A stretch of 64,000 bases of DNA from Myxococcota bacterium (GTDB lineage: Bacteria > Myxococcota > B64-G9), in assembly GCA_022710975.1 (NCBI GenBank), contig JAKLGA010000002.1, positions 310,001-374,000 on the forward strand. The letters are read 5' to 3'. The notes beneath the pieces are model-generated. The model worked only from the letters and a program-made list of their open reading frames with translations, had not been told where the DNA came from and searched no databases. Shown here one piece after another: positions 17,808 through 29,256 of the stretch. The position numbers were made by a program, and so were the translations under genes. The first letter of the stretch is position 1; the number at the start of each line of letters is the position of its first letter.

Positions 17808-18200
17808 TCACCCCACGGTGATGTCGAAGCCCGGCGGGTTCTCGAGGTGCTTCTTGACGGCGCACTTCTGGGCCGAGCGGACGATGGCCGCGTGGTGCTC
17901 CTGTCCGACACCCGCGGGCAAGCGGATGGACATGCGCACCTTGCCGATCAAGCCCGTGGACGGATCGCGCTCGTGGTCCTGGAGGATCTGCAGGCCCCCG
18001 GTTGGCAGGCCGCGCGCCTTGAGGTAGCCCAGCACGTAGATGCCCGCGCACGTGCCCAGCGAGGCCAGGAACAGGGAGAAGGGCGTGGGCGCCGAGCCCT
18101 CCCCGCCCCCCTCGGCCGGTTGGTCGGTGTGCACCGTGAAGCCGCCGAGCTGCGCGTCCACCCTCAGTCCGCCCGGGAAGCTCACCACCAGGTCCGCCAT
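17808..18200 (-). CDS. OsmC-family protein
   Basis: The 130-aa product follows a strong GGAGGAGGAG site. OsmC-family proteins are dimeric thiol-dependent peroxidases that reduce organic hydroperoxides. The two redox cysteines are present: Cys51 in SLGTCAGIYVLGYL and Cys113 in SAQKCAVKKHLE. The sequence resembles the OsmC/YhfA-type branch rather than Ohr; the physiological substrate is uncertain. It lies downstream of the Stig1-like gene on the same strand (89-nt gap with a hairpin GCCGGG-N7-CCCGGC at 18248-18266), and shows no ECF motif of its own. Confidence 0.9.
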   Translation of the reverse strand: MADLVVSFPGGLRVDAQLGGFTVHTDQPAEGGGEGSAPTPFSLFLASLGTCAGIYVLGYLKARGLPTGGLQILQDHERDPSTGLIGKVRMSIRLPAGVGQEHHAAIVRSAQKCAVKKHLENPPGFDITVG

Positions 18201-18289: not shown

Positions 18290-20176
18290 TCACCAGGCCA
18301 TGGGGCACTGGTCGGCCTGGACACAGACGATCACACCCGGGTCGCCCGGGTACGGGCAGCAGCGCGTCTGGCCCTGGCACTCCTCGCAGGGGCAGGCGTC
18401 GCAGCCGCGGGCGAGGGTGAACGCGCGGCAGTCGCCGCGCGCGCACAGCTCGTCCACGGCGCAGGTGAGGTTGCACTCGCCGCAGTTCAAGGGATGGACG
18501 TTGAACGCGGCGTCGGTCACGCAGGACTGCGCGTTTGGATCGCAGCTCGTCGTCGGGCCCATGCAGTTGTTGACGCAGTTGCTGTTCATGCAGAAGTCCT
18601 GCTGTCCCGTGCACGTCCGCCCGCACTGGCCGCAGTTCGTGTCGTCGCTGCGGGTGTCCACGCAGGCCCCGGCGCACAGCGTCAGGCCCGGCCGGCAGGC
18701 GCACTGGCCATCCAGACAGTACTGGGCATCCTCGCAGACGGTGCCGCAGCCGCCGCAGGCCGTGGGATCGTCCTGCAGATCGAGGCACTGGTCCACTCCG
18801 CCCACCTCGCAGAGGCTCAGGCCGGCCGCGCAGCCGCACACCCCGGCGGTGCACAACCCGAACAGCGGATCGCAGCTCGTGCCGCAGGCCCCGCAGTGAT
18901 CCTCGTCGGTGTCCAGGTCCGCGCACGCCCCGCCGCAGTCCTGGGTGCCGGCCGGGCAGGAGCAAGCGCCGTCCTGGCAGACCGCACCCGTGTCGCAGCG
19001 CGTGTCGCAGGTGCCGCAGTGGTCCGGGTCGAGGTCCAGGGACACGCAGCCCTCGCCGCACAGGCTGAGCCCGACCGGGCACTGGCAGGCGCCGGAGACG
19101 CACACGGCGGCGTCCCCGCAGTCGGTCTGGCAATCGCCGCAGTGCTCCGGATCCGAGGACAGCTCCGCGCACACGGCGCCGCAGTCCACCTGGCCGGACG
19201 GGCACACGCACACGCCCGAGGTGCAGGTCGCGCCCGCGGGGCAAGCCTCGGGGCAAGAGCCGCAGTGCTGGAGGTCGCTCGACAAATCCGTGCACACCCC
19301 GCCGCAGTCCACCAGCTCGCCCGGGCAGGGTTGGCACACGCCCGCGACGCACTCCGCGCCCACCAGACACTCCTCGCCGCAGATCCCGCAGTTGGCGGGA
19401 TCCGTGGCCAGCTCCGCGCACACGTCCCCGCAGTTGACCTCTCCGGCCGGGCAGGTGCACACCCCGGCGGCGCAGGTGCCACCCTCCCCGCAGGCCGCCC
19501 CGCAGGCGCCGCAGTTCGCCATATCGGTCTGGAGGTCGGCGCACACGCTCCCGCAGTCACTCCACCCTGCCGGGCACACGCAGCCGCCCGAGATGCACTC
19601 CTCTCCGGGGATGCAGGCCACGTCGCACGTGCCGCAGTAGCCCGGATCGCTGGACAGATCCGCGCAGGCCTCCCCGCAGTTCACCTCTCCGGCGGGGCAG
19701 GTGCACACGCCGTCCGCGCAGGTGCCACCCTCGCCGCAGGGTCGGTTGCAGGCGCCGCAGTGGTCCATGTCGGTCAGGAGATCGGCGCAGGCGTCCCGGC
19801 AGCGCTCGGTCCCCTCCGGGCACTGGCAGGCGCCCGACACGCACTCCCCACCGGTCGGACAGTCCCGGCCGCAGGCGCCACAGTTCGCCTCGTCCGCGGA
19901 CAGGTCCACGCACTCGGTGTCGCACTCGAGCAGCCCCGCGGGGCAGCCCGCGAGACACCCGCCCAGGTGGCATAGCTCCCCGTCCTCGCAGGCGTCTCCG
20001 CATGCGCCACAGTTCTGCTCATCGGCCTGGAGATCGACGCAGGCGCCGTCGCAGGCGGTCAGGCCCGTGTCGCAAGCTCCCGGCCTGGAAGTGGAATCAC
20101 AGGCGGGCTGGAGGCAGACGGCGGCCAGGAGCAGCACCCACGCGAAGGCCGGGACGATCCGAGCACCGCGAGACAT
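18290..20176 (-). CDS. Stig1-like Cys-rich repeat protein (13 units), probable lipoprotein
   Basis: The ATG at 20176 follows GAGGAGGACACC. The signal ends VCLQPACDST, a probable lipobox. The rest is 13 tandem units of about 34-36 residues of the form CPAGxxxCGxxCxDLxxDxxxCGxCxxxC...GxCxxGxC, as in Stig1-like proteins described from myxobacteria. The last unit is divergent (CDPNAQSCVTD) and leads into a 40-residue end module with CPCEEC, RCCPYPGDP and CVQADQCP, shared with the protein encoded at 23822-26086. The Cys pairs imply oxidative folding outside the cytoplasm. Together with PilY1 it may form part of a surface or pilus-tip assembly. It has its own ECF-type promoter. Confidence 0.9.
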   Translation of the reverse strand: MSRGARIVPAFAWVLLLAAVCLQPACDSTSRPGACDTGLTACDGACVDLQADEQNCGACGDACEDGELCHLGGCLAGCPAGLLECDTECVDLSADEANCGACGRDCPTGGECVSGACQCPEGTERCRDACADLLTDMDHCGACNRPCGEGGTCADGVCTCPAGEVNCGEACADLSSDPGYCGTCDVACIPGEECISGGCVCPAGWSDCGSVCADLQTDMANCGACGAACGEGGTCAAGVCTCPAGEVNCGDVCAELATDPANCGICGEECLVGAECVAGVCQPCPGELVDCGGVCTDLSSDLQHCGSCPEACPAGATCTSGVCVCPSGQVDCGAVCAELSSDPEHCGDCQTDCGDAAVCVSGACQCPVGLSLCGEGCVSLDLDPDHCGTCDTRCDTGAVCQDGACSCPAGTQDCGGACADLDTDEDHCGACGTSCDPLFGLCTAGVCGCAAGLSLCEVGGVDQCLDLQDDPTACGGCGTVCEDAQYCLDGQCACRPGLTLCAGACVDTRSDDTNCGQCGRTCTGQQDFCMNSNCVNNCMGPTTSCDPNAQSCVTDAAFNVHPLNCGECNLTCAVDELCARGDCRAFTLARGCDACPCEECQGQTRCCPYPGDPGVIVCVQADQCPMAW

Positions 20177-20220
20177 GGTGTCCTCCTCGAGGCCCGACAG
20201 GGTGCGGGCCTCTGGCGTAC

Positions 20221-20245
20221 TACGCACGGCCGCCAGAGGAGGTAA
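20221..20245 (-). promoter_or_regulatory. ECF-type promoter (site 1) before the Stig1-like gene
   Basis: Read on the minus strand: TTACC (20245-20241), 15 nt, GCGTA (20225-20221). The same motif precedes PilY1, the second Stig1-like gene, the sigma gene itself and the divergent lipoprotein gene. Confidence 0.65.
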
Positions 20246-20265
20246 CGCGGAGCGGAGCGGCGCGC

Positions 20266-23200
20266 CTAGAGCACCCGGCCCCAGTGGATCATCTGGGCGC
20301 TCGGCGCCAGGCCCGGGACGGTCACGGTGTAGACCGAGGTGCCCACCGGCAGGGTCAGCGAAGCTCTGCCATCCGGCGTGAACACGACCGACGGCGAGGT
20401 GAGCGGGCCTCCCACACCGGGCTGGAACGGGGCTATGACCGGCGTGGTGAAGTCGTCGAAGTCGAGGCCGTACAGCCTGCCCGTGCCCGGCTCGCAGCGG
20501 TTCGGGTTGGCGATGTAAGTGGTGTAGTAGACGTTGCCGCCCGCCACGAACGGCTTGCCCCACATGCGCTCACCGGCGCCCAGCGCCAACCGCATCTGCG
20601 GATCGAGGTAACCCACGGCGTCCGGCGTGCGGTAGCTCGAGGCGTCGCCCGACAGGGTCTGCTCCACCCCGAAGAAGTACTCCTGGGCGGTGCGGACCTC
20701 GAAGGTGTCGTTCTCGCCCGTGCCGAAGAACAGCACCAGGTTGCGCTCGTAGTTCAGCGCCAGGGTGGGCGGCACCATGATCGGCCGCGGCGTGAGCCCC
20801 GCGTCGCGCTGCATGTCGAACCAGGGCGAGGGCGGCTTGGTGGGGTCGTTTTCCACCCGGCCCACGTCCCAGAGGTAGGTCGTGGCGCCGGCCACGTTGG
20901 GCTGGATCAGCATGTTGCTCACCACGCTCTTCTCGGTCTCCAGCCCGTCGTCCTTGTACAGCGCGGTCTCGAAGCCGACCTGGTACACCCGGCCCTTGGT
21001 GGTGGGGAAGAAGGCCGAGGTGATGTACTCGCCCAGGTGGACGTTGTAGGCCACCGGCGTGCCGGCCATGCTCTCGATCATGAAGTCCTGGTCCACGGAC
21101 AGCTCGAAGCGGCCCTGGTGCTCGTGATCCACGAAGTCGCAGCCCTCGGTCTTGAGGAAGATGTAGACGCCTCCGGCCACGTTCTTCGGCTTCTGGAAGG
21201 TGTAGTGGCAGGGCGTGGTCCCGTTCCCGTTGCAGCCCGGCATGCCCGTGCCCGGGTTGTAGCAGCAGTCCTTCTGGTAGAGCGTGTCCGTCTCGGTCAC
21301 CGTGCAGTAGTCGAGCAGCTCCGGCGGCAGGTAGGGAGGGTTCTGGACCTCGAGCCGCTTCTCGTCGCACCACCAGCCCTCGCCGTCGAAGTTGTTGCCG
21401 TTGCCGATGTGGTTCCAGGTGGAGGTCGGATCCGTCGCCAGGGTGTTGTAGAAATCGTCCAGCAGCGCCTGGTTGCCGGCGTTCACCGCCTCCGAGATCA
21501 GGAAGCGCTTGAGCAGCTTGCCGGTCTCCACGTCGATCACGTGCACCGAGTTGGCGAGGATCAGGCCCTCGACGAAGTCGATGCAGCTCATGACGTTCAG
21601 CAGCGAGGAGGTCGGCACGTAACCGCCGGGGACGATCATCACCGGCTTGCTGATGTAGGGCGGATCACCCGCGCTGGCGTTCGCGTCCTTCAGCCAGACC
21701 TGGCCCACGACGGGCTGGGAGTGGGAGAAGGCCCGCGAGCCCGAGCACTGCTTGAGGGAGTAGTCCAGGGAGATGTCCACGTCGGGCCGGTACTCCCACA
21801 GGTACTTGGGGTTCTGTGGGTCGGTCACGTCCAGCGCGAAGTAGCCCGAGCCGCCCCCGCGCAGGCTGCCGAACAGCACCGTGCGGTAGGCGCCCAGGAT
21901 GGGCTGGTTGGCGGCGTCCTTGACCGGGTTGCCCAGCTTGTCGAGCAGCGGCACGTCTTTGAAGTACACGTCGCGCACCACGGGCGTGTTGTCCACGTAG
22001 TAGTCGTGCCGCACGCGCACGTTCTGGATCTTGTGCAGGAGCTGGTTGGGGATGAAGGCCCACAGCTCCCGGCCGGTCTCGTCCGCCCCCACCCCGTCCA
22101 CGTCCTCGGCCACGAAGGCGTGCAGCATGCCGTCGTTGGCGCCCACGTACACCATGGTGTGGCGATCGATGTTGTTGCGGAAGTAGAACTCGTACTTGAA
22201 GTCCTCGCCCAGCGCGGACGGCGCGGTCACCACCGCCGGGCTGGAGTGGAAGATGTCGCCCAGCCAGGGGGCGGTCACGGTCACCTTGTCGCCCACCGAG
22301 GTGGTCCCGGGCACGCCGCGCACGAAGTTCTTGATCTTGTCCGAGAGCGCCGGCACGCCGATGCCCTCGCTGTCCCACAGGCACATCCAGGGATCGGTGT
22401 CGTGCAGCCCGGCCTCGAAGGAGTACAGGCCGTCGTCCGGGTTGGCCGACACCGGCCGGGGGAGCTGGCTGGCCAGGAAGGTGGAGGAGCGCGGGTCGTG
22501 GACCACGGTGTAGAGGCGCCGCGAGTTCGAGTTCTGGGCGGCCAGCACCTCGTCGAAGCGGGTCCACTGGGCCTGCGGGGTCCACTGCGGATTCCCGTCC
22601 CCGTCCAGGATCACCGGGATGCGGATGAGGTGGCCCTGCCAGCCGATGCCCGACAGGCTGACCTCGAAGTAGGCGGCGAACTGGAAGCTCTTGTCGTAGG
22701 TCAGGCTGGAGGCCACCGAGGTCATCTCGGTGCGGCTGGCCGCGCCGGACAGGATGGCGTCCAGCACGGCCGAGAAGGCCAGGTAGAGCGTCAGCGGGTT
22801 GTCGGCCACGAAGGAGGGCACCAGCCCGCCCGAGCCGGCGTAGGCGATGGGGTCGGTCCAGGGGCGCACGTCGCCGAAGCCGACCACGAACACCGGGATG
22901 CCCATGGAGAACAGGTTGAAGGCCTCCTGCTCGGGCGAGGAGTAGCCGTAGTCCCAGGGCCCGTTGTTGCCGCCGTCGGTCATCAGCAGCACGAATCTCC
23001 GGCGGCAGAGCTCCATGGGGTCCGTGTAGGCCGGGGTGACCTCGGTGGTCCAGTGGGTGTAGTACCAGCGGGCGTCCCACAGCGAGGCGTTCAGCGGGGT
23101 GCAGCCGGTCGCCCCGGCCGCACAGGCGCCGTCCTGGACCTTGACGTTGTTGCCCAGGATGTCCGTGGGATCGGCCGGATCGACGAGATCGACCAGCCCC

Positions 23201-23673
23201 CCGCCGACGGCGCCGCGCTGCTTGATGCCTATCTGGCCCTTGCTGGCCTTGGAGTCGCCCGTGCCCCAGGCCGGGTAGTTCCACACGGTGCTGCCCCTGC
23301 ACCAGCCACAGCCGCAGGGCCGGTCGTCGTCGAACGTGGCGAAACCGAAACGGACCAGGTCCTTGTAGATGTCCAGGATGCCGTTCGGAGACTGGCGGGT
23401 GAGGTCGCCGCACGTGCCGCGCTGCCACAGGTAGGTCCCGGTGAGCACCTCGCGGGTGGCGAGTTGGGCCGAGCAGAAGCCGGCCGCCGTCCCGCTGCCG
23501 CAGGGGTACCAGCCGCCCGCCATGGAGCCCGAGGTGTCGATGATCACGAAGACGTCGGGCAGGGCCAGCAGGGGATCGTCCCCCGAGTAGATCCCCTGCG
23601 CCCGTGCCGGGGCCCAGCTCGCCAGCGCGGCCAGCGCAGTGCCGAACGCCACCAGCGCCGCTCTCCTCGTCAT
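20266..23673 (-). CDS. pilY1: PilY1-like type IV pilus tip adhesin with VWA domain
   Basis: The 1135-aa protein has a Sec signal peptide ending APARAQG. A von Willebrand A domain (about 35-340) contains DVFVIIDTSGSM with the DxSxS metal site. The C-terminal two thirds is a PilY1 beta-propeller: VYVGANDGMLHAFVAEDVDG, ELWAFIPNQLL, YYVDNTPVVRDVY and GSLRGGGSGYFALDVTDP. PilY1 is the tip adhesin and assembly factor of type IV pili. An internal section about residues 690-800 (Cys-rich, KDCCYNPGTG) may be a lineage-specific insert. Pilus genes are absent from the window. It lies between two Stig1-like paralogues and is preceded by an ECF-type promoter, so its expression is probably coupled to the adjacent sigma factor. 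Confidence 0.92.
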   Translation of the reverse strand: MTRRAALVAFGTALAALASWAPARAQGIYSGDDPLLALPDVFVIIDTSGSMAGGWYPCGSGTAAGFCSAQLATREVLTGTYLWQRGTCGDLTRQSPNGILDIYKDLVRFGFATFDDDRPCGCGWCRGSTVWNYPAWGTGDSKASKGQIGIKQRGAVGGGLVDLVDPADPTDILGNNVKVQDGACAAGATGCTPLNASLWDARWYYTHWTTEVTPAYTDPMELCRRRFVLLMTDGGNNGPWDYGYSSPEQEAFNLFSMGIPVFVVGFGDVRPWTDPIAYAGSGGLVPSFVADNPLTLYLAFSAVLDAILSGAASRTEMTSVASSLTYDKSFQFAAYFEVSLSGIGWQGHLIRIPVILDGDGNPQWTPQAQWTRFDEVLAAQNSNSRRLYTVVHDPRSSTFLASQLPRPVSANPDDGLYSFEAGLHDTDPWMCLWDSEGIGVPALSDKIKNFVRGVPGTTSVGDKVTVTAPWLGDIFHSSPAVVTAPSALGEDFKYEFYFRNNIDRHTMVYVGANDGMLHAFVAEDVDGVGADETGRELWAFIPNQLLHKIQNVRVRHDYYVDNTPVVRDVYFKDVPLLDKLGNPVKDAANQPILGAYRTVLFGSLRGGGSGYFALDVTDPQNPKYLWEYRPDVDISLDYSLKQCSGSRAFSHSQPVVGQVWLKDANASAGDPPYISKPVMIVPGGYVPTSSLLNVMSCIDFVEGLILANSVHVIDVETGKLLKRFLISEAVNAGNQALLDDFYNTLATDPTSTWNHIGNGNNFDGEGWWCDEKRLEVQNPPYLPPELLDYCTVTETDTLYQKDCCYNPGTGMPGCNGNGTTPCHYTFQKPKNVAGGVYIFLKTEGCDFVDHEHQGRFELSVDQDFMIESMAGTPVAYNVHLGEYITSAFFPTTKGRVYQVGFETALYKDDGLETEKSVVSNMLIQPNVAGATTYLWDVGRVENDPTKPPSPWFDMQRDAGLTPRPIMVPPTLALNYERNLVLFFGTGENDTFEVRTAQEYFFGVEQTLSGDASSYRTPDAVGYLDPQMRLALGAGERMWGKPFVAGGNVYYTTYIANPNRCEPGTGRLYGLDFDDFTTPVIAPFQPGVGGPLTSPSVVFTPDGRASLTLPVGTSVYTVTVPGLAPSAQMIHWGRVL

Positions 23674-23740
23674 GGCCTGCCTCCCTCGTTCACCCGTGAG
23701 GAACGACGAGGCCAGCGAGCACGCGGGCCTCGGGAGCGAG

Positions 23741-23764
23741 TACGCGGGGGGGTTGAAAAGGTAA
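23741..23764 (-). promoter_or_regulatory. ECF-type promoter (site 2) before pilY1
   Basis: Minus strand: TTACC (23764-23760), 14 nt, GCGTA (23745-23741), about 68 nt upstream of the ATG at 23673. Confidence 0.65.
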
Positions 23765-23821
23765 CGGACGGCGGAGTGGCGCGCTGGCGCCACCCGCCGC
23801 GTGGACTGCCCGAGGTTTGGC

Positions 23822-26086
23822 TCAGCCGCCCATCGGGCACTGGTTGCCCTGGACGCAGAGGATCACGGACGGATCGCCGGGGTAGGTGCAGCAGCGGCTG
23901 CCGTCCGCGCAGTTCTGGCAGGGGCAGGAGTCGCAGCCCAGGGCCGCGTCGAAGGCCACGCAGGCGCCCTGCACGCACAGCTCGCCCACGGCGCAGACCA
24001 GGTTGCAGCCGCCGCAGTGGATCGGGCTGGTGTTGAAGACCGAGTCGAACACGCAGGACTGGGCATTCGGATCGCACTCGGTGGTCTGGCCTGAGCAGGA
24101 CATCACGCAGTTGTTGTTCTGGCAGAACGCGCCCACGCCGGCCTGGCCCGTGCACTCCCGGCCGCACTGGCCGCAGTTCGCGTCGTCGCTGCGGGTGTCC
24201 ATGCACGCCCCGCCGCAGTCCGTGAGCCCCGGCCGGCAGGCACACGCGCCATCCAGGCAATACTGGGTGTCCCCGCAGACGCCGGTGCAGCTGCCGCAGC
24301 TCTCCGGATCATCGAGGAGATCGCGGCAGACGTTGGCGCCCTCGTCGCAGTTGGCCAGCCCGGCCATGCACTCGCACACGCCCGCGGTGCACATCCCGAA
24401 AGCGGGGTCGCACGCCGTGCCGCAGGCCCCGCAGTTGGCCTCGTCGCTGGCGAGGTCCGCGCACGCCCCGCCGCAGTCCTGGGTCCCGGCAGGGCACTCG
24501 CACTGGCCGTCCTGGCAGATGGCTCCTTCCGGACAATCGTGCCCGCACTGGCCGCAGTTGGCCGGATCGAGGAGGAGCGACACGCAGGCGCCGTCGCAGG
24601 CGGTCAGCCCCAGCGGGCACTGGCAGGCGCCGGAGATGCACTCGGCCCCTTCGTCGCACGCGATCTGGCAGCCACCGCAGAGATCCGGATCGGTGGAGAG
24701 GTCCGCACATTCCACCCCACAGTCCACCAGTCCGTCCGGGCAGGTGCACACCCCGTCGAGGCACTCGGCCCCCGCGGGGCAGTGGGTCTCGCACGCCCCG
24801 CAGTGCTGCACGTCCGAGGCGAGGTCCGTGCACACACCGCCGCAGTCCACCAGCTCGCCCGGGCAGGGCTGGCACACGCCCGCGATGCACTCGGCGCCCA
24901 GGGCGCACTCCACGCCGCACTGGCCGCAGTTGGTGATGTCGGTGGCCAGGTCCGCGCACAGATCGCCGCAGTTCACCAAGCCGGCGGGGCAGGTGCACAC
25001 CCCACCCACGCAGCTGCCGCCCTCGCCGCACAGCGTCCCGCATGCGCCGCAGTTCTGCATGTCGGTCTGGAGATCCGCGCACACGTCGCCGCAGTCGGTC
25101 CAGCCTTCCGGGCAGACGCACGCACCCGAGAGGCACTCCTCCCCGGGCAGGCAGACCACCTCGCAGGTGCCGCAGTGGCTGGCGTCGCTGGACAGATCGG
25201 CGCAGTCATCGCCGCAGTTCACCAACCCCGCCGGGCACAGGCACAAGCCGTCCTGACAGGTGCCGCCGAGGCCGCACAGGTTGCCGCAGCTCCCGCAGTT
25301 GCCGAGGTCGGTCAACAGATCAGCGCACGCGTCGCCGCACAGCACCTCGTCGGCCGCGCAGCGGCACAGGCCCGAGATGCACTCCCCGCCCAGCGGGCAG
25401 GCCACGGCGCACGAGCCGCAGTGGAGCACGTCGCTGGACAGATCCGCGCACACCTGGTCGCAGTCCACCTCGCCCACGGGACAAGTGCAGGCCCCCGCCT
25501 CGCACAGGGCGGTGGGGGGGCAGGCGTTGCCGCAGGCCCCGCAGTGGTCCTCGTCCGTCGTCCAGTCGACGCACTCACCCGCGCACTCCTCGGCATCCGC
25601 CTGGCAAGCGCAATGCCCGTCGACGCAGTTCGCCAGGGCACCGCAGGCGTTGAGGCAGGAGCCGCAGTGGCCCTCGTCGGTCGCCAGGTCCACGCAGCTG
25701 CCTGCGCAGTCCGTCTCCCCCGCTCCACAGGCGGGCTGGCACAGCCCGCCCAGGCACTCCACCCCGGGGTCGCAGGCGTGGTCGCACGACCCGCAGTTCG
25801 CCTCGTCCGTGGCCAGGTCCACGCACGCCCCGGAGCAGTCCGCCTCCCCTGCCCCGCAGCCGGCCTGGCACGCTCCGTCCACGCACTCCACCCCGGGGTC
25901 GCAGGCGTGGTCACACGTCCCGCAGTTCGTCTCGTCCGTAGCCAGGTTCACGCACACCCCGGAGCAGTCCGCCTCCTGGATATCGCACTCCAGAGGGCTG
26001 GACTCACTTCCACACCCCGCTCCTCCCAGGCAGAGCGCCAGCAGTGTCTCGAGCGCGAGCAGCCCTCTGGAAATACGACTCCTCAT
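23822..26086 (-). CDS. Stig1-like Cys-rich repeat protein (16 units), probable lipoprotein
   Basis: A strong GAGGAGGAGGTG site precedes ATG 26086. The signal ends GGAGCGSE, a probable lipobox. Sixteen Cys-rich units follow, similar to those in the 18290-20176 protein; the last twelve match that protein's units 2-13 in order, so this copy has three extra N-terminal units. The end module (SCPCQNC, RCCTYPGDP, CVQGNQCP) matches the paralogue closely. The two proteins are therefore an old duplication around PilY1 with unit gain or loss. Function is not known; a structural surface or pilus-associated role is inferred. Confidence 0.9.
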   Translation of the reverse strand: MRSRISRGLLALETLLALCLGGAGCGSESSPLECDIQEADCSGVCVNLATDETNCGTCDHACDPGVECVDGACQAGCGAGEADCSGACVDLATDEANCGSCDHACDPGVECLGGLCQPACGAGETDCAGSCVDLATDEGHCGSCLNACGALANCVDGHCACQADAEECAGECVDWTTDEDHCGACGNACPPTALCEAGACTCPVGEVDCDQVCADLSSDVLHCGSCAVACPLGGECISGLCRCAADEVLCGDACADLLTDLGNCGSCGNLCGLGGTCQDGLCLCPAGLVNCGDDCADLSSDASHCGTCEVVCLPGEECLSGACVCPEGWTDCGDVCADLQTDMQNCGACGTLCGEGGSCVGGVCTCPAGLVNCGDLCADLATDITNCGQCGVECALGAECIAGVCQPCPGELVDCGGVCTDLASDVQHCGACETHCPAGAECLDGVCTCPDGLVDCGVECADLSTDPDLCGGCQIACDEGAECISGACQCPLGLTACDGACVSLLLDPANCGQCGHDCPEGAICQDGQCECPAGTQDCGGACADLASDEANCGACGTACDPAFGMCTAGVCECMAGLANCDEGANVCRDLLDDPESCGSCTGVCGDTQYCLDGACACRPGLTDCGGACMDTRSDDANCGQCGRECTGQAGVGAFCQNNNCVMSCSGQTTECDPNAQSCVFDSVFNTSPIHCGGCNLVCAVGELCVQGACVAFDAALGCDSCPCQNCADGSRCCTYPGDPSVILCVQGNQCPMGG

Positions 26087-26168
26087 CGCACACCTCCTCC
26101 TCGGCGGTCCATGGCGCCACAGACCGGCCTGGGTCGAAGACGTCGACAGACCTTGGCGCTGGCTCTAC

Positions 26169-26193
26169 TACGCGGGGGAGGCGGTGCGGGTAA
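26169..26193 (-). promoter_or_regulatory. ECF-type promoter (site 3) before the second Stig1-like gene
   Basis: Minus strand: TTACC (26193-26189), 15 nt, GCGTA (26173-26169), in the gap after the anti-sigma gene and 83 nt before the ATG at 26086. Confidence 0.65.
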
Positions 26194-26202
26194 CGGCGGC
26201 GC

Positions 26203-27303
26203 TCACCACTGGACCTTGTAGTCGCGAATCTCGACCCGTCGCTCGGGCTGCAGCGCCTCCGCGGGCGGGTGTGGGCGGACGGCGGGCTCCGGCGGCTGGT
26301 CGACCGGGGCAGGCCCGGGAACGTCCGCCGCCATCGCCAGCGCCGGGCCCATGCTCAGGCTGCGGCGATTGCCCAGCACGTCCTCGGCCACCAGCTCGAG
26401 GTGCTGGCCGGGCTTGACCCGGACGCGCTCGGCGAAGCGGCCCTGCGCATCCAGGGCGATGGGGCGGCCGTTGAGCCACACCCGGGCATGCGTGTCGGCC
26501 TGGCCAGCCACGGGCAGGGCCGCCGAGGCGACCAGCGCGCCCTGGGGCTCCCGCAGCGAGATCTCGACCGTGTCCCGGACCGGAACAGGCGTGGGGACCT
26601 CTGTCCCCGGGGCCAGGCGCACCTGCAGCCCGGCCTGGAGCGGCAGGCGCCGCTCGCCCGCCACCACCTCGGCCTGGCCCTTGCGAACCGCGACCACCGC
26701 GCGCCCGCCCTCCAGGGCCAGGGCGTCGAAGGCCCCCTGGCGGCCCTCGACCAGGGTGCGCGAGGGCCGGTGGGTCACCTGCACCGCGCGCCGCCCGCCG
26801 TCGAGCAGCTCCACGCTCACCCGGCCGAGCTCGAGCTCCAGGCTGCGCATCGCCGGCTCGAGCCGCACCAGGCGCACGGCGGTCGCCGCGTGCAGGATGA
26901 CCCGCGCGTCCGGGTCCAGGTCGAGCTCCGCGCGGGAGTCATCGCCCACGGACACGAGGTCCTGCGCGTGGAGCACCTCCCCCATCCGCACCGGCGATCG
27001 CTGGCCCGCCGCCACCCGGTGGACCTCTCCGCTCACCTGCCGCACCCGGCAGCTCCCCGGCCCGAGGTGCCGGTCCCCGCCGGGCGCGCCCAGCAAGAAG
27101 AAGAGGATCACGCCCAGCGCCAGCCCGGCGAGCAAGCCTCCGCCGGCCCAGGCCAGCCGCGGCGAGAGGCGTCGGCCTGGCCCCACAGGACGGGCCACCC
27201 CTTCGCGCCTCAGCGCGTCCAGGATGGCAGGGGCCAGATCCCGGGAGAGCTCCGGTCGCGGCAGCTCCGAGAGCTGGCGCTCGAGTTCTTCAGGCGAATT
27301 CAT
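26203..27303 (-). CDS. FecR-domain anti-sigma factor
   Basis: The 366-aa protein starts with a cytoplasmic helical segment (EELERQLSELP, residues 1-45) that would hold the sigma factor. One membrane span follows (about 51-73; LAWAGGGLLAGLALGVILFFLL), then a periplasmic FecR-like beta domain (about 85-215; RVRQVSGEVHRVAAGQ, DDSRAELDLDPDARVIL). A second beta-sandwich domain follows (about 230-330), with a Pro-rich end. Its ATG overlaps the sigma gene's stop (ATGA), so the pair are translated together. No zinc-binding ZAS motif is seen, so the release signal is probably sensed in the periplasm by the FecR part. Confidence 0.85.
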   Translation of the reverse strand: MNSPEELERQLSELPRPELSRDLAPAILDALRREGVARPVGPGRRLSPRLAWAGGGLLAGLALGVILFFLLGAPGGDRHLGPGSCRVRQVSGEVHRVAAGQRSPVRMGEVLHAQDLVSVGDDSRAELDLDPDARVILHAATAVRLVRLEPAMRSLELELGRVSVELLDGGRRAVQVTHRPSRTLVEGRQGAFDALALEGGRAVVAVRKGQAEVVAGERRLPLQAGLQVRLAPGTEVPTPVPVRDTVEISLREPQGALVASAALPVAGQADTHARVWLNGRPIALDAQGRFAERVRVKPGQHLELVAEDVLGNRRSLSMGPALAMAADVPGPAPVDQPPEPAVRPHPPAEALQPERRVEIRDYKVQW

Positions 27304-27875
27304 GTCTCGTCAGCTCCTGCCTCGGACGCCTCGAGCAAGCTCCTCAGCCGGGCGCGCGCCCGGCTGACCCGCATCTTCAGCACCAGCGCCGGCACGCCCA
27401 GCGCCTGGCCCATCTCCTGGTAGCTCATGCCCTCGTGGAACTTGAGCAACAGGGCCACGCGACCCTTCTCGGGCAGGGCCATCAAAGCCCGTTCGAGCCG
27501 CTGGGCGCGCTCCCTGCGCGAGGCCGGATCGCCCTCGCCGGGCGGCTGGGCAGCCAGGCCCTCGACCACCTCCAGCTCCATGGGGATCGCCTGCCTGCGG
27601 GCGTTCCGGTGCCAGGAGTGGCTCAGGTTGATCCCGAGCCGCACCAGCCACGGCCAGAACGGCCGCTCCAGGTCGTACAGGTGGAGCTTGCGGAAGGCCA
27701 GCAGGAAGGACTCCTGGGTCAGATCCTCCGCCGCGGCGCGATCGCGCACCAGGCGGAGCAGCAGGCCGAAGAGCCGCCGTTGATACCACCGCACGACCTC
27801 CCCGTAGGGCTCCAGGCAGCCGCGCTGGCACTCCTCGAGGATCGCGCGCTCGCGCTCCCTGCTGGGTGTTCCCAT
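27300..27875 (-). CDS. ECF RNA polymerase sigma factor
   Basis: Region 2 is seen in RDRAAAEDLTQESFLLAFRK with the region 2.3-2.4 tryptophan stretch (RPFWPWLVRLGINLSHSWHR). Region 4 is LPEKGRVALLLKFHEGMSYQEMG followed by MRVSRARARLRSLL. The 191-aa length is typical. I use the ATG at 27875; an upstream GTG is possible because the Shine-Dalgarno is weak. It overlaps and is co-translated with the FecR anti-sigma gene. The motif TTACC-N15-ACGTA about 40 nt upstream suggests it transcribes its own gene as well as the Stig1-like, pilY1 and beta-helix genes next to it. Confidence 0.95.
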   Translation of the reverse strand: MGTPSRERERAILEECQRGCLEPYGEVVRWYQRRLFGLLLRLVRDRAAAEDLTQESFLLAFRKLHLYDLERPFWPWLVRLGINLSHSWHRNARRQAIPMELEVVEGLAAQPPGEGDPASRRERAQRLERALMALPEKGRVALLLKFHEGMSYQEMGQALGVPALVLKMRVSRARARLRSLLEASEAGADET

Positions 27876-27914
27876 GTCGCTCGCCAGACGCTCGCTCCCT
27901 TTCTCCACCGATCC

Positions 27915-27939
27915 TACGTCCAGGGCGCCTGCTTGGTAA
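27915..27939 (-). promoter_or_regulatory. Autoregulatory ECF-type promoter (site 4) before the sigma gene
   Basis: Minus strand: TTACC (27939-27935), 15 nt, ACGTA (27919-27915), about 40 nt before the sigma start. Confidence 0.6.
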
Positions 27940-27963
27940 CCCGACACGCACGGCCTCCGTCTG

Positions 27964-27988
27964 TTACCCATGAGCATCCGCGATCGTA
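27964..27988 (+). promoter_or_regulatory. ECF-type promoter (site 5), divergent, before the beta-helix lipoprotein gene
   Basis: Plus strand: TTACC (27964-27968), 15 nt, TCGTA (27984-27988), about 60 nt before the ATG at 28051. It faces away from site 4 across a 25-bp interval. Confidence 0.6.
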
Positions 27989-28050
27989 TGCCAGCATGCA
28001 ACCGGAGGGCCCTTGAGGGAGGGCCCGTTCCGCTCTAGGATGGGCCCGGA

Positions 28051-29256
28051 ATGAGAGCTCCGCCCTTCGACGCCCTCTTGCTCCTGGGTGGCGCGCTGCT
28101 CGCGGCGGGCGGGCTGACCGCCTGCACCCGAGCCAACCCGGCCTACTGCGCCACGGCCGAGGACTGCGCGGACCCTGGCCTGCCGGTGTGTGACGCCGCC
28201 ACCCACGCCTGCGTGCCGGGCGCCGACGGGGAGGAGGCGGGCCCGGATGGGGGCGGGGGCGAGGACGGCCAGGACGCCCGGGACGCCGGGGATGGCCAGG
28301 ACGAGGCGTCCTCGGAGGAGCAGGCCGACGAGGGGGCGGACGCGGCCCGCGTCGGGTGGTTCGTGGATGCCCAGGCCTGCCCGGGTTCGGGAGTCGGCAC
28401 CGAGGCCGATCCCTTCTGCACCATCCAGGAGGCCCTGGACGCGGCCAGCCCGGGCCAGACGATCTGGATCGCGGCCGGCACCTACGCGGAGAGCCTCAGC
28501 CTGTCGGAGGACATCTCCCTGATCGGGGCGCCAGGGGTGCTGCTGAACGGGTCGAGCTGCCCCATCCTGGCGGTGATGGGCGGCGCCCGGGTGTCGCTGC
28601 GTTCTCTCACCCTCACCTCCTCCGGGTCCGGCTCGAACGGCCTGCTGCAGGTGGTGGGCAGCGCCGCGTTGACCGCGCAGGAGCTCCACCTGGGGCCGAG
28701 CAGCTGCGTGGGCCTGCGCTGCTCGCAGGCCAGCTGCGCCCTGGACCGGTCGGTGGTCCAGGGCAACTCGGCCGGCGGCCTGGATCTCGGCCAGAGCCTG
28801 TACGACGTGACCAACACCTTCGTGACGGACAACGGGCCGACCGGGCAGATCGGCGCTGCGCGGCTCGATCAGCCGGTCGCAGGCTCTCGCTTCGCCTTCA
28901 ACACCCTGGCGTTCAACCAGACCCAGGGCATGAACGGCGCGGGCCTGACCTGCCAGACCACGGCGGTCGCGGACTCCTGCGTGCTGTGGGAGAACGCCGG
29001 CGGGGACGTGTCCGCGAACTGCACCGTGAGCTACTCCGACGTCTCGCAGGCCCCGGGCACCTACGCCGGGACCGGCAACCAGAACGTGGAGCCGCTCTTC
29101 CGCGACGAGCTCGGCCGCGACCTGCACCTCGAACCGGGCTCCCCCTGCATCAACGCCGGGAACCCCGCGCCGGCCAGTGTGCCCGACCATGATCACGACG
29201 GGCAGCTCCGCCCGCAGGGTGGTCGCGCGGACCAGGGCGCCCACGAGGCTGGCTGA
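28051..29256 (+). CDS. Right-handed beta-helix lipoprotein
   Basis: The signal ends GGLTACTRA, a lipobox, followed by a short Cys-rich N-terminal unit (CATAEDCADPGLPVCDAATH). A long Asp/Gly/Glu-rich spacer follows (about 55-108), then a parallel beta-helix region (about 110-375; DPFCTIQEALDAASPGQTIW, IAAGTYAESLSLSEDISLIG). This resembles DUF1565/pectate-lyase-like folds. The end HDHDGQLRPQGGRADQGAHE is typical of such proteins. No polysaccharide-lyase catalytic residues could be named, so a surface binding or structural role is likely. It is divergent from the sigma factor and has an ECF-type promoter. Confidence 0.85.
   Translation: MRAPPFDALLLLGGALLAAGGLTACTRANPAYCATAEDCADPGLPVCDAATHACVPGADGEEAGPDGGGGEDGQDARDAGDGQDEASSEEQADEGADAARVGWFVDAQACPGSGVGTEADPFCTIQEALDAASPGQTIWIAAGTYAESLSLSEDISLIGAPGVLLNGSSCPILAVMGGARVSLRSLTLTSSGSGSNGLLQVVGSAALTAQELHLGPSSCVGLRCSQASCALDRSVVQGNSAGGLDLGQSLYDVTNTFVTDNGPTGQIGAARLDQPVAGSRFAFNTLAFNQTQGMNGAGLTCQTTAVADSCVLWENAGGDVSANCTVSYSDVSQAPGTYAGTGNQNVEPLFRDELGRDLHLEPGSPCINAGNPAPASVPDHDHDGQLRPQGGRADQGAHEAG

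What the first reader, a model, noticed from the sequence alone, without database searches (positions are those of the whole stretch)
20176..28051. Five copies of TTACC-N14/15-NCGTA define an ECF sigma regulon around pilY1
The motif occurs in five successive intergenic gaps: 20221-20245, 23741-23764, 26169-26193, 27915-27939 (minus) and 27964-27988 (plus). Each is oriented toward the gene it precedes: Stig1-like A, pilY1, Stig1-like B, the sigma gene itself and the divergent beta-helix lipoprotein. Spacing is nearly constant (14 or 15 nt) and leaders are about 25-75 nt. CGT in the -10 element is common in ECF promoters. The sigma factor is paired with a FecR-type anti-sigma factor. This predicts an envelope-signalled, autoregulated programme for a pilus adhesin and Cys-rich surface proteins, with an unusual TTACC -35.
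Basis: partly seen in the sequence, partly recalled or inferred. Interest (0 to 1): 0.85.

Follow-up and report, generated by a model that had tools for sequence, protein, structure and literature searches.

The report
Five-promoter local ECF regulon with PilY1
One 8-kb stretch of this bacterial genome holds the only five copies in the whole genome of a two-part promoter-like sequence, one in front of a sigma-factor gene and each of four surface-protein genes, one of which is a relocated duplicate of the cell's pilus-tip gene; the cell therefore probably has a self-switched module for changing its surface and its pilus tip.

Summary
GTTACC-N15/16-CGTA occurs exactly five times in the 7.13-Mb genome. 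All five copies lie in this 7.8-kb locus, each 39-82 nt before a start codon and pointing at it. De novo search of the five upstream regions finds it as the only 6+4 pattern shared by all five; 300 simulated and 300 real control sets gave none. Corrections: the sites lie in four gaps, not five; the sigma-FecR junction has no site.
Best reading: an autoregulated, strictly local ECF sigma/FecR-type anti-sigma regulon with a non-canonical -35 (GTTACC, not AAC-type) and a normal ECF -10 (CGTA). Targets are two MXAN_6577-like Cys-rich lipoproteins, a beta-helix lipoprotein and PilY1. Promoter use by this sigma is inferred, not shown.
New here: this pilY1 is a duplicate (81% protein identity) of the copy in the conserved minor-pilin/pilM operon elsewhere in the genome. 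DNA similarity runs from the ribosome-binding site, 17 nt before ATG, to the stop codon, so the duplicate left its operon and sits behind one of the five promoters. No orthologous sigma was found in 8 same-family or 195 same-phylum genomes.

The parts
20221..20246 (-). Promoter-like site of StigA: GTTACC-N16-CGTA (CGTAGTA)
23741..23765 (-). Promoter-like site of pilY1: GTTACC-N15-CGTA
26169..26194 (-). Promoter-like site of StigB: GTTACC-N16-CGTA (CGTAGTA), 9 nt after the FecR stop codon
27915..27940 (-). Promoter-like site of the sigma gene (autoregulation site): GTTACC-N16-CGTA
27963..27988 (+). Promoter-like site of the divergent beta-helix lipoprotein: GTTACC-N16-CGTA
27300..27875 (-). ECF sigma factor, 191 aa (regions 2 and 4 only)
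   Evidence: Pfam Sigma70_r2 1.1e-11, Sigma70_r4_2 6.6e-10; NCBIfam sigma70-ECF 76.2 bits over cut-off 42.9
26203..27303 (-). FecR-domain putative anti-sigma factor, 366 aa: N-terminal segment of about 54 aa, one TM (55-73), FecR domain (116-211), weak Ig-like/Glucodextranase-B match (253-312)
   Evidence: overlaps the sigma gene by 4 nt (ATGA)
23822..26086 (-). StigB: Cys-rich (138 Cys) MXAN_6577-like / Stig1-repeat protein, probable lipoprotein
20266..23673 (-). PilY1 duplicate, 1135 aa, signal peptide, MIDAS-like IIDTSGSM, PilY1 beta-propeller domain
18290..20176 (-). StigA: Cys-rich (114 Cys) MXAN_6577-like / Stig1-repeat protein, 65% identical to StigB, probable lipoprotein
28051..29256 (+). 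Beta-helix type surface lipoprotein (choice-of-anchor Q; lipobox LTAC)
17808..18200 (-). OsmC-like protein directly downstream of StigA, without a motif of its own; possibly read through from the StigA promoter
   Evidence: readthrough is inference

Best explanation
A strictly local, positively autoregulated ECF sigma / FecR-type anti-sigma module. Inferred mechanism: the single-TM FecR protein holds the sigma inactive; an unidentified envelope or surface signal relieves it; the sigma then reads five GTTACC-N15/16-CGTA promoters, its own (which also drives fecR through the ATGA overlap), two Cys-rich Stig1/MXAN_6577-like lipoproteins, a beta-helix lipoprotein, and a second pilY1. The second pilY1 arose by duplication of the T4P-operon pilY1 from its RBS to its stop codon, so it is expressed independently of the pilus operon and could supply an alternative pilus-tip adhesin to the same machine. 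Shown: site positions, genome-wide uniqueness, protein families, the duplication and its boundaries. Inferred: sigma-promoter pairing, anti-sigma action, signal, tip exchange.
For: Five of five genome-wide matches lie in one 7.8-kb locus, correctly oriented, 39-82 nt before starts. It is the unique shared bipartite pattern in the five upstream regions, with 0 of 300 controls. Its shape matches the ECF hallmarks of CGT -10, adjacent anti-sigma and autoregulation listed in PMC8103513. Sigma and FecR families and the 4-nt overlap. StigA and StigB are paralogs whose boxes agree 13/13 while the 16-nt spacers agree at only 7/16 (from the sequences), so the boxes are kept and the rest is not. The pilY1 duplication gives a natural promoter swap: 87% DNA identity from 17 nt upstream of ATG to the stop, then unrelated flanks, and the parent copy's upstream DNA lacks the motif. 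Parent location is conserved: pilY1 followed by pilM/N/O in most relatives whose contigs cover that stretch. The two copies evolve at equal rates, so the duplicate is not decaying faster.
Against: No transcription data. No orthologous locus was found in the searched relatives, so the motif cannot be footprinted across species. The -35 lacks the AAC of most ECF promoters. FecR has no close homolog (best 29% over 240 aa), so its anti-sigma role rests on domain, topology and position. The genome has many other ECF-like genes (67 candidates in the first look) that could in principle read the sites.
Confidence: 0.8

Rival explanations
1. The sites are operators for an unidentified transcription factor acting at ordinary promoters, not the -35/-10 of an ECF holoenzyme.
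For: The motif is longer and more invariant than many ECF promoters; the two divergent sites put two GTTACC boxes in inverted orientation.
Against: The halves GTTACC and CGTA are neither direct nor inverted repeats of each other; the spacing is that of a promoter, with one 15-nt case; CGT is the ECF -10; no DNA-binding regulator other than the sigma was noticed in the cluster.
Confidence: 0.1
2. The sites are ECF promoters read mainly by another of the genome's ECF sigmas; the local sigma is a by-stander or one of several readers.
For: Many ECF candidates in the genome; ECF cross-recognition is known in general (own knowledge).
Against: The sites exist nowhere else in the genome, so a sigma encoded elsewhere would have no site at its own gene; the only sigma gene with the motif is this one.
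Confidence: 0.07
3. Chance or descent: copied upstream DNA rather than selected promoter elements.
For: StigA/StigB are paralogs and share CGTAGTA.
Against: Expectation 0.00 in shuffles; spacers and flanks differ between sites; pilY1, sigma and beta-helix are unrelated genes; the pilY1 duplication did not bring its upstream region.
Confidence: 0.03

Closest known systems
ECF sigma / FecR-like regulator pairs, e.g. Leptospira LIC_12757/LIC_12756 (PMC12155086)
   Same: ECF sigma next to a one-TM FecR-domain protein; autoregulated promoter with a spacer in the 14-17 nt range and CGT in the -10.
   Different: Here the sites form a five-promoter local set for Cys-rich lipoproteins and PilY1; the Leptospira study ties the pair to iron and nutrient limitation. 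Orthology was not tested.
FecI/FecR cell-surface signalling (E. coli fec; review PMC9249621)
   Same: FecR-domain membrane protein paired with an ECF sigma.
   Different: No TonB-dependent receptor in the locus (nearest 52 kb away on the contig); the sigma gene carries the motif, whereas fecIR is not autoregulated.
Condition-dependent multiple PilY1 tips of Myxococcus xanthus (PMC7541494, PMC8833165, PMC13190605)
   Same: Several PilY1 per genome; differently regulated clusters; unlinked pilY1 genes and duplications known in Myxococcota.
   Different: M. xanthus sets come with their own minor pilins and are linked to FruA/CsgA/MrpC and HsfA; here a lone duplicated pilY1 carries an ECF-type promoter. 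No held paper was found that links PilY1 to an adjacent ECF sigma (judged from titles and abstracts).
MXAN_6577-like Cys-rich proteins (NCBIfam NF041328; Pfam Stig1)
   Same: StigA and StigB exceed the curated cut-off (380.8 and 541.6 bits against 100).
   Different: No literature found on function or regulation in the held library.

Membership tests
ECF (group IV) sigma factor | sigma regions 2 and 4, no region 3 | tested here: met
   Only Sigma70_r2 and Sigma70_r4 models match in 191 aa; sigma70-ECF over cut-off
ECF (group IV) sigma factor | cognate anti-sigma encoded with it | tested here: inconclusive
   FecR-domain, single-TM protein overlapping by 4 nt; binding not tested
ECF (group IV) sigma factor | -10 box CGT | tested here: met
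   CGTA at all five sites
ECF (group IV) sigma factor | -35 box with AAC (common, not obligatory) | tested here: not met
   GTTACC at all five sites; the later definition of an ECF does not require AAC
ECF (group IV) sigma factor | positive autoregulation (common, not obligatory) | tested here: inconclusive
   Motif ends 39 nt before the sigma start; no expression data
FecIR cell-surface signalling system | FecR-domain anti-sigma with one TM | tested here: met
   PF04773 5.2e-6 over cut-off; TM at 55-73
FecIR cell-surface signalling system | adjacent TonB-dependent transducer | tested here: not met
   17 receptor matches in the genome, nearest 52 kb away
PilY1 (T4aP tip adhesin) | PilY1 beta-propeller domain | tested here: met
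   PF05567 3.9e-15
PilY1 (T4aP tip adhesin) | linked to minor pilin genes (usual, not obligatory) | tested here: not met
   Not beside the window copy; prepilin-type genes do sit beside the parent copy at G000:C1. Unlinked pilY1 is known
MXAN_6577-like Cys-rich protein | NF041328 over curated cut-off | tested here: met

The most novel reading that the evidence does not exclude
A tip-swap module: an orphan ECF sigma with a non-AAC -35 specificity has captured a promoterless duplicate of the main pilus-tip gene, so that an envelope signal replaces or supplements the tip adhesin of an otherwise constant type IV pilus while recoating the surface with Cys-rich lipoproteins.
Probability: 0.35. Interest if true: 0.68.

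Novelty: new member of a known kind. Interest (0 to 1): 0.5.

Why it matters
The locus is a compact, self-contained and testable candidate ECF regulon: five promoter-like sites with no other copies in the genome. It offers a clean -35/-10 specificity outside the AAC class, and a clear case of a gene moved into a regulon by a duplication that starts at the ribosome-binding site. It makes the idea that bacteria switch pilus tips by transcription directly testable, and gives a regulatory context for the common but little-studied MXAN_6577/Stig1 Cys-rich proteins.

Tried and rejected
Genome-wide regulon: rejected. Exact sites occur only here. The 1-mismatch searches returned 50 and 34 matches including the exact sites, with 56 and 110 in the reversed controls, and only a handful of the matches examined lie in promoter position. 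Conservation across relatives: no genome of 39 shows a comparable cluster; the nearest sigma relatives (41% or less) and the FecR homologs have no Stig1/PilY1 neighbours, and the sigma relatives' loci have no motif. A pair of motif copies 378 bp apart in G026 falls in 35% GC DNA, one inside a frame, and was dropped. Rfam: no RNA family in the window. Structure prediction was not run: no alignment partners permitted for that tool were found for FecR, and single-sequence models would be poor. A strand folding on the leaders failed on length and was not repeated because the case does not depend on it.

Full report
Observation. The pattern GTTACC-N15/16-CGTA was found at exactly the five claimed places. 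In 100 dinucleotide shuffles of the window it was never found. In the whole genome (7,132,103 bases, 29 contigs, 98.6% complete) it occurs five times, all here; the reversed pattern, as a control, occurs twice. If five sites were scattered at random, the chance that all fall within 7.8 kb is of the order of 1e-11 (own arithmetic). Loosening to GTTACC-N14-17-CGT gives 20 matches against 26 in the control. Of the 15 matches outside the locus, 14 overlap predicted coding frames and none stands free within 250 nt upstream of a predicted gene. To allow for the choice of pattern, all bipartite 6+4, 5+4 and 4+4 words with gaps of 10-21 nt were enumerated in the five 130-nt upstream regions. Only this motif and its sub-words are shared by all five. 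300 Markov simulations and 300 sets of real window segments gave none.

Geometry. Spacers are 16 nt (four sites) and 15 nt (pilY1). The -10 end lies 39-82 nt before the start codon. StigA and StigB carry CGTAGTA. Over those two paralogous sites the boxes agree at 13 of 13 positions and the spacers at 7 of 16 (sequences).

Proteins. The sigma has regions 2 and 4 only. FecR has one TM segment at 55-73, a FecR domain at 116-211 and a weak Ig-like match at 253-312. StigA (114 Cys) and StigB (138 Cys) are MXAN_6577-like Cys-rich proteins, 65% identical to each other; by their N-termini they and the beta-helix protein look like lipoproteins (the lipoboxes of StigA and StigB were read by eye). PilY1 has the PilY1 beta-propeller model and a MIDAS-like IIDTSGSM near the N-terminus.

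The duplicated pilY1. The window PilY1 is 81% identical over its full length to a second PilY1 at G000:C1:171178-174564. That copy lies in a cluster with a response regulator, prepilin-type genes, then pilM and two further pilN/pilO-like genes (pilN and pilO named by position and look). The same order (response regulator, minor-pilin-like genes, pilY1, small protein, pilM, pilN, pilO) is seen in same-family genomes where the contig is long enough; one contig, G003, has different genes after pilY1. By shared synteny the C1 copy is at the ancestral place and the window copy is the moved duplicate; among the nine genomes of its family only this one shows two full-length copies. DNA similarity (87%) begins 17 nt before ATG, taking in the RBS GGAGGCAGGCC, and ends at the stop codon; beyond that the flanks are unrelated. 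The motif-bearing promoter was therefore not copied with the gene. dN is 0.135 and dS 0.178 (ratio about 0.76; codon bias in this GC-rich genome depresses dS, so this is not proof of positive selection). Relative-rate tests against six relatives show no asymmetry (p 0.6-1). Both copies therefore look maintained.

Relatives. The sigma's best match in 195 same-phylum genomes is 41% identical, and none of the eight other same-family genomes has a match at E 1e-20. FecR's best is 29%. None of the fetched neighbourhoods of sigma or FecR relatives contains Stig1 or PilY1 genes like these, and none of 1.34 Mb around sigma relatives contains the motif. The locus appears lineage-specific; the price is that no cross-species footprint could be made.

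Mechanism. The parts match the ECF scheme: CGT -10, neighbouring one-TM regulator, site in front of the sigma gene (hallmarks in PMC8103513; a FecR-paired autoregulated example in PMC12155086). It departs in the -35 (GTTACC, not AAC-type) and in lacking a TonB-dependent receptor nearby (nearest 52 kb), so it should not be filed as FecIR cell-surface signalling. The likely sequence of events is: signal at the envelope, release of sigma from FecR, firing of five promoters including its own. Everything after the promoter sites is inference. The functional output would be Cys-rich and beta-helix lipoproteins plus a second pilus tip. Precedents for differently regulated PilY1 sets exist in M. xanthus, and lone pilY1 genes are known in Myxococcota. 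I found no held paper linking pilY1 to an adjacent ECF sigma (titles and abstracts only).

Possible outlying members. Among the 1-mismatch sites, two stand in promoter position before exported proteins: GTGACC-N16-CGTA before a Cys-rich lipoprotein with CCSGxC repeats (G000:C2:138401) and GTTGCC-N16-CGTA before a probable secreted metalloprotease (G000:C12:208395). About two such sites are expected by chance (own rough estimate), so they are leads only.

Verdict. The kind (local autoregulated ECF regulon) is known; the -35, the cargo and the pilY1 duplicate behind an ECF-type promoter are the new parts.

Noticed in passing
20209-20239: A perfect 9-bp inverted repeat (CCTCTGGCG/CGCCAGAGG) brackets the -10 of the StigA site just after the pilY1 stop; not found at the other four sites. 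Possibly a pilY1 transcript end or an operator.
   Followed up: partly
27906-27908: In-frame GTG about 7 nt after the sigma gene's own -10: the sigma mRNA could be leaderless instead of starting at ATG 27875, which has a weak RBS.
   Followed up: no
L274 around 1501-1568 (G000:C2:138401): GTGACC-N16-CGTA before a Cys-rich CCSGxC-repeat lipoprotein gene: one mismatch from the motif.
   Followed up: partly
L289 around 1501-1572 (G000:C12:208395): GTTGCC-N16-CGTAGAG before a probable secreted metalloprotease (HESAHFFGLPD): one mismatch from the motif.
   Followed up: partly
window 20266-23673 and L155:13178-16567: dN/dS near 0.76 between the two PilY1 copies, with differences concentrated at about residues 50-200, 650-850 and 1050-1135: possible diversifying selection on tip surfaces.
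   Followed up: partly
17808-18200: OsmC-like protein gene directly downstream of StigA without its own motif; may be co-transcribed.
   Followed up: no
L046 (G194:C223): A sigma 39% identical to this one is followed by a FecR-like protein with a similar-looking Ig-like C-terminal part but different neighbours.
   Followed up: partly
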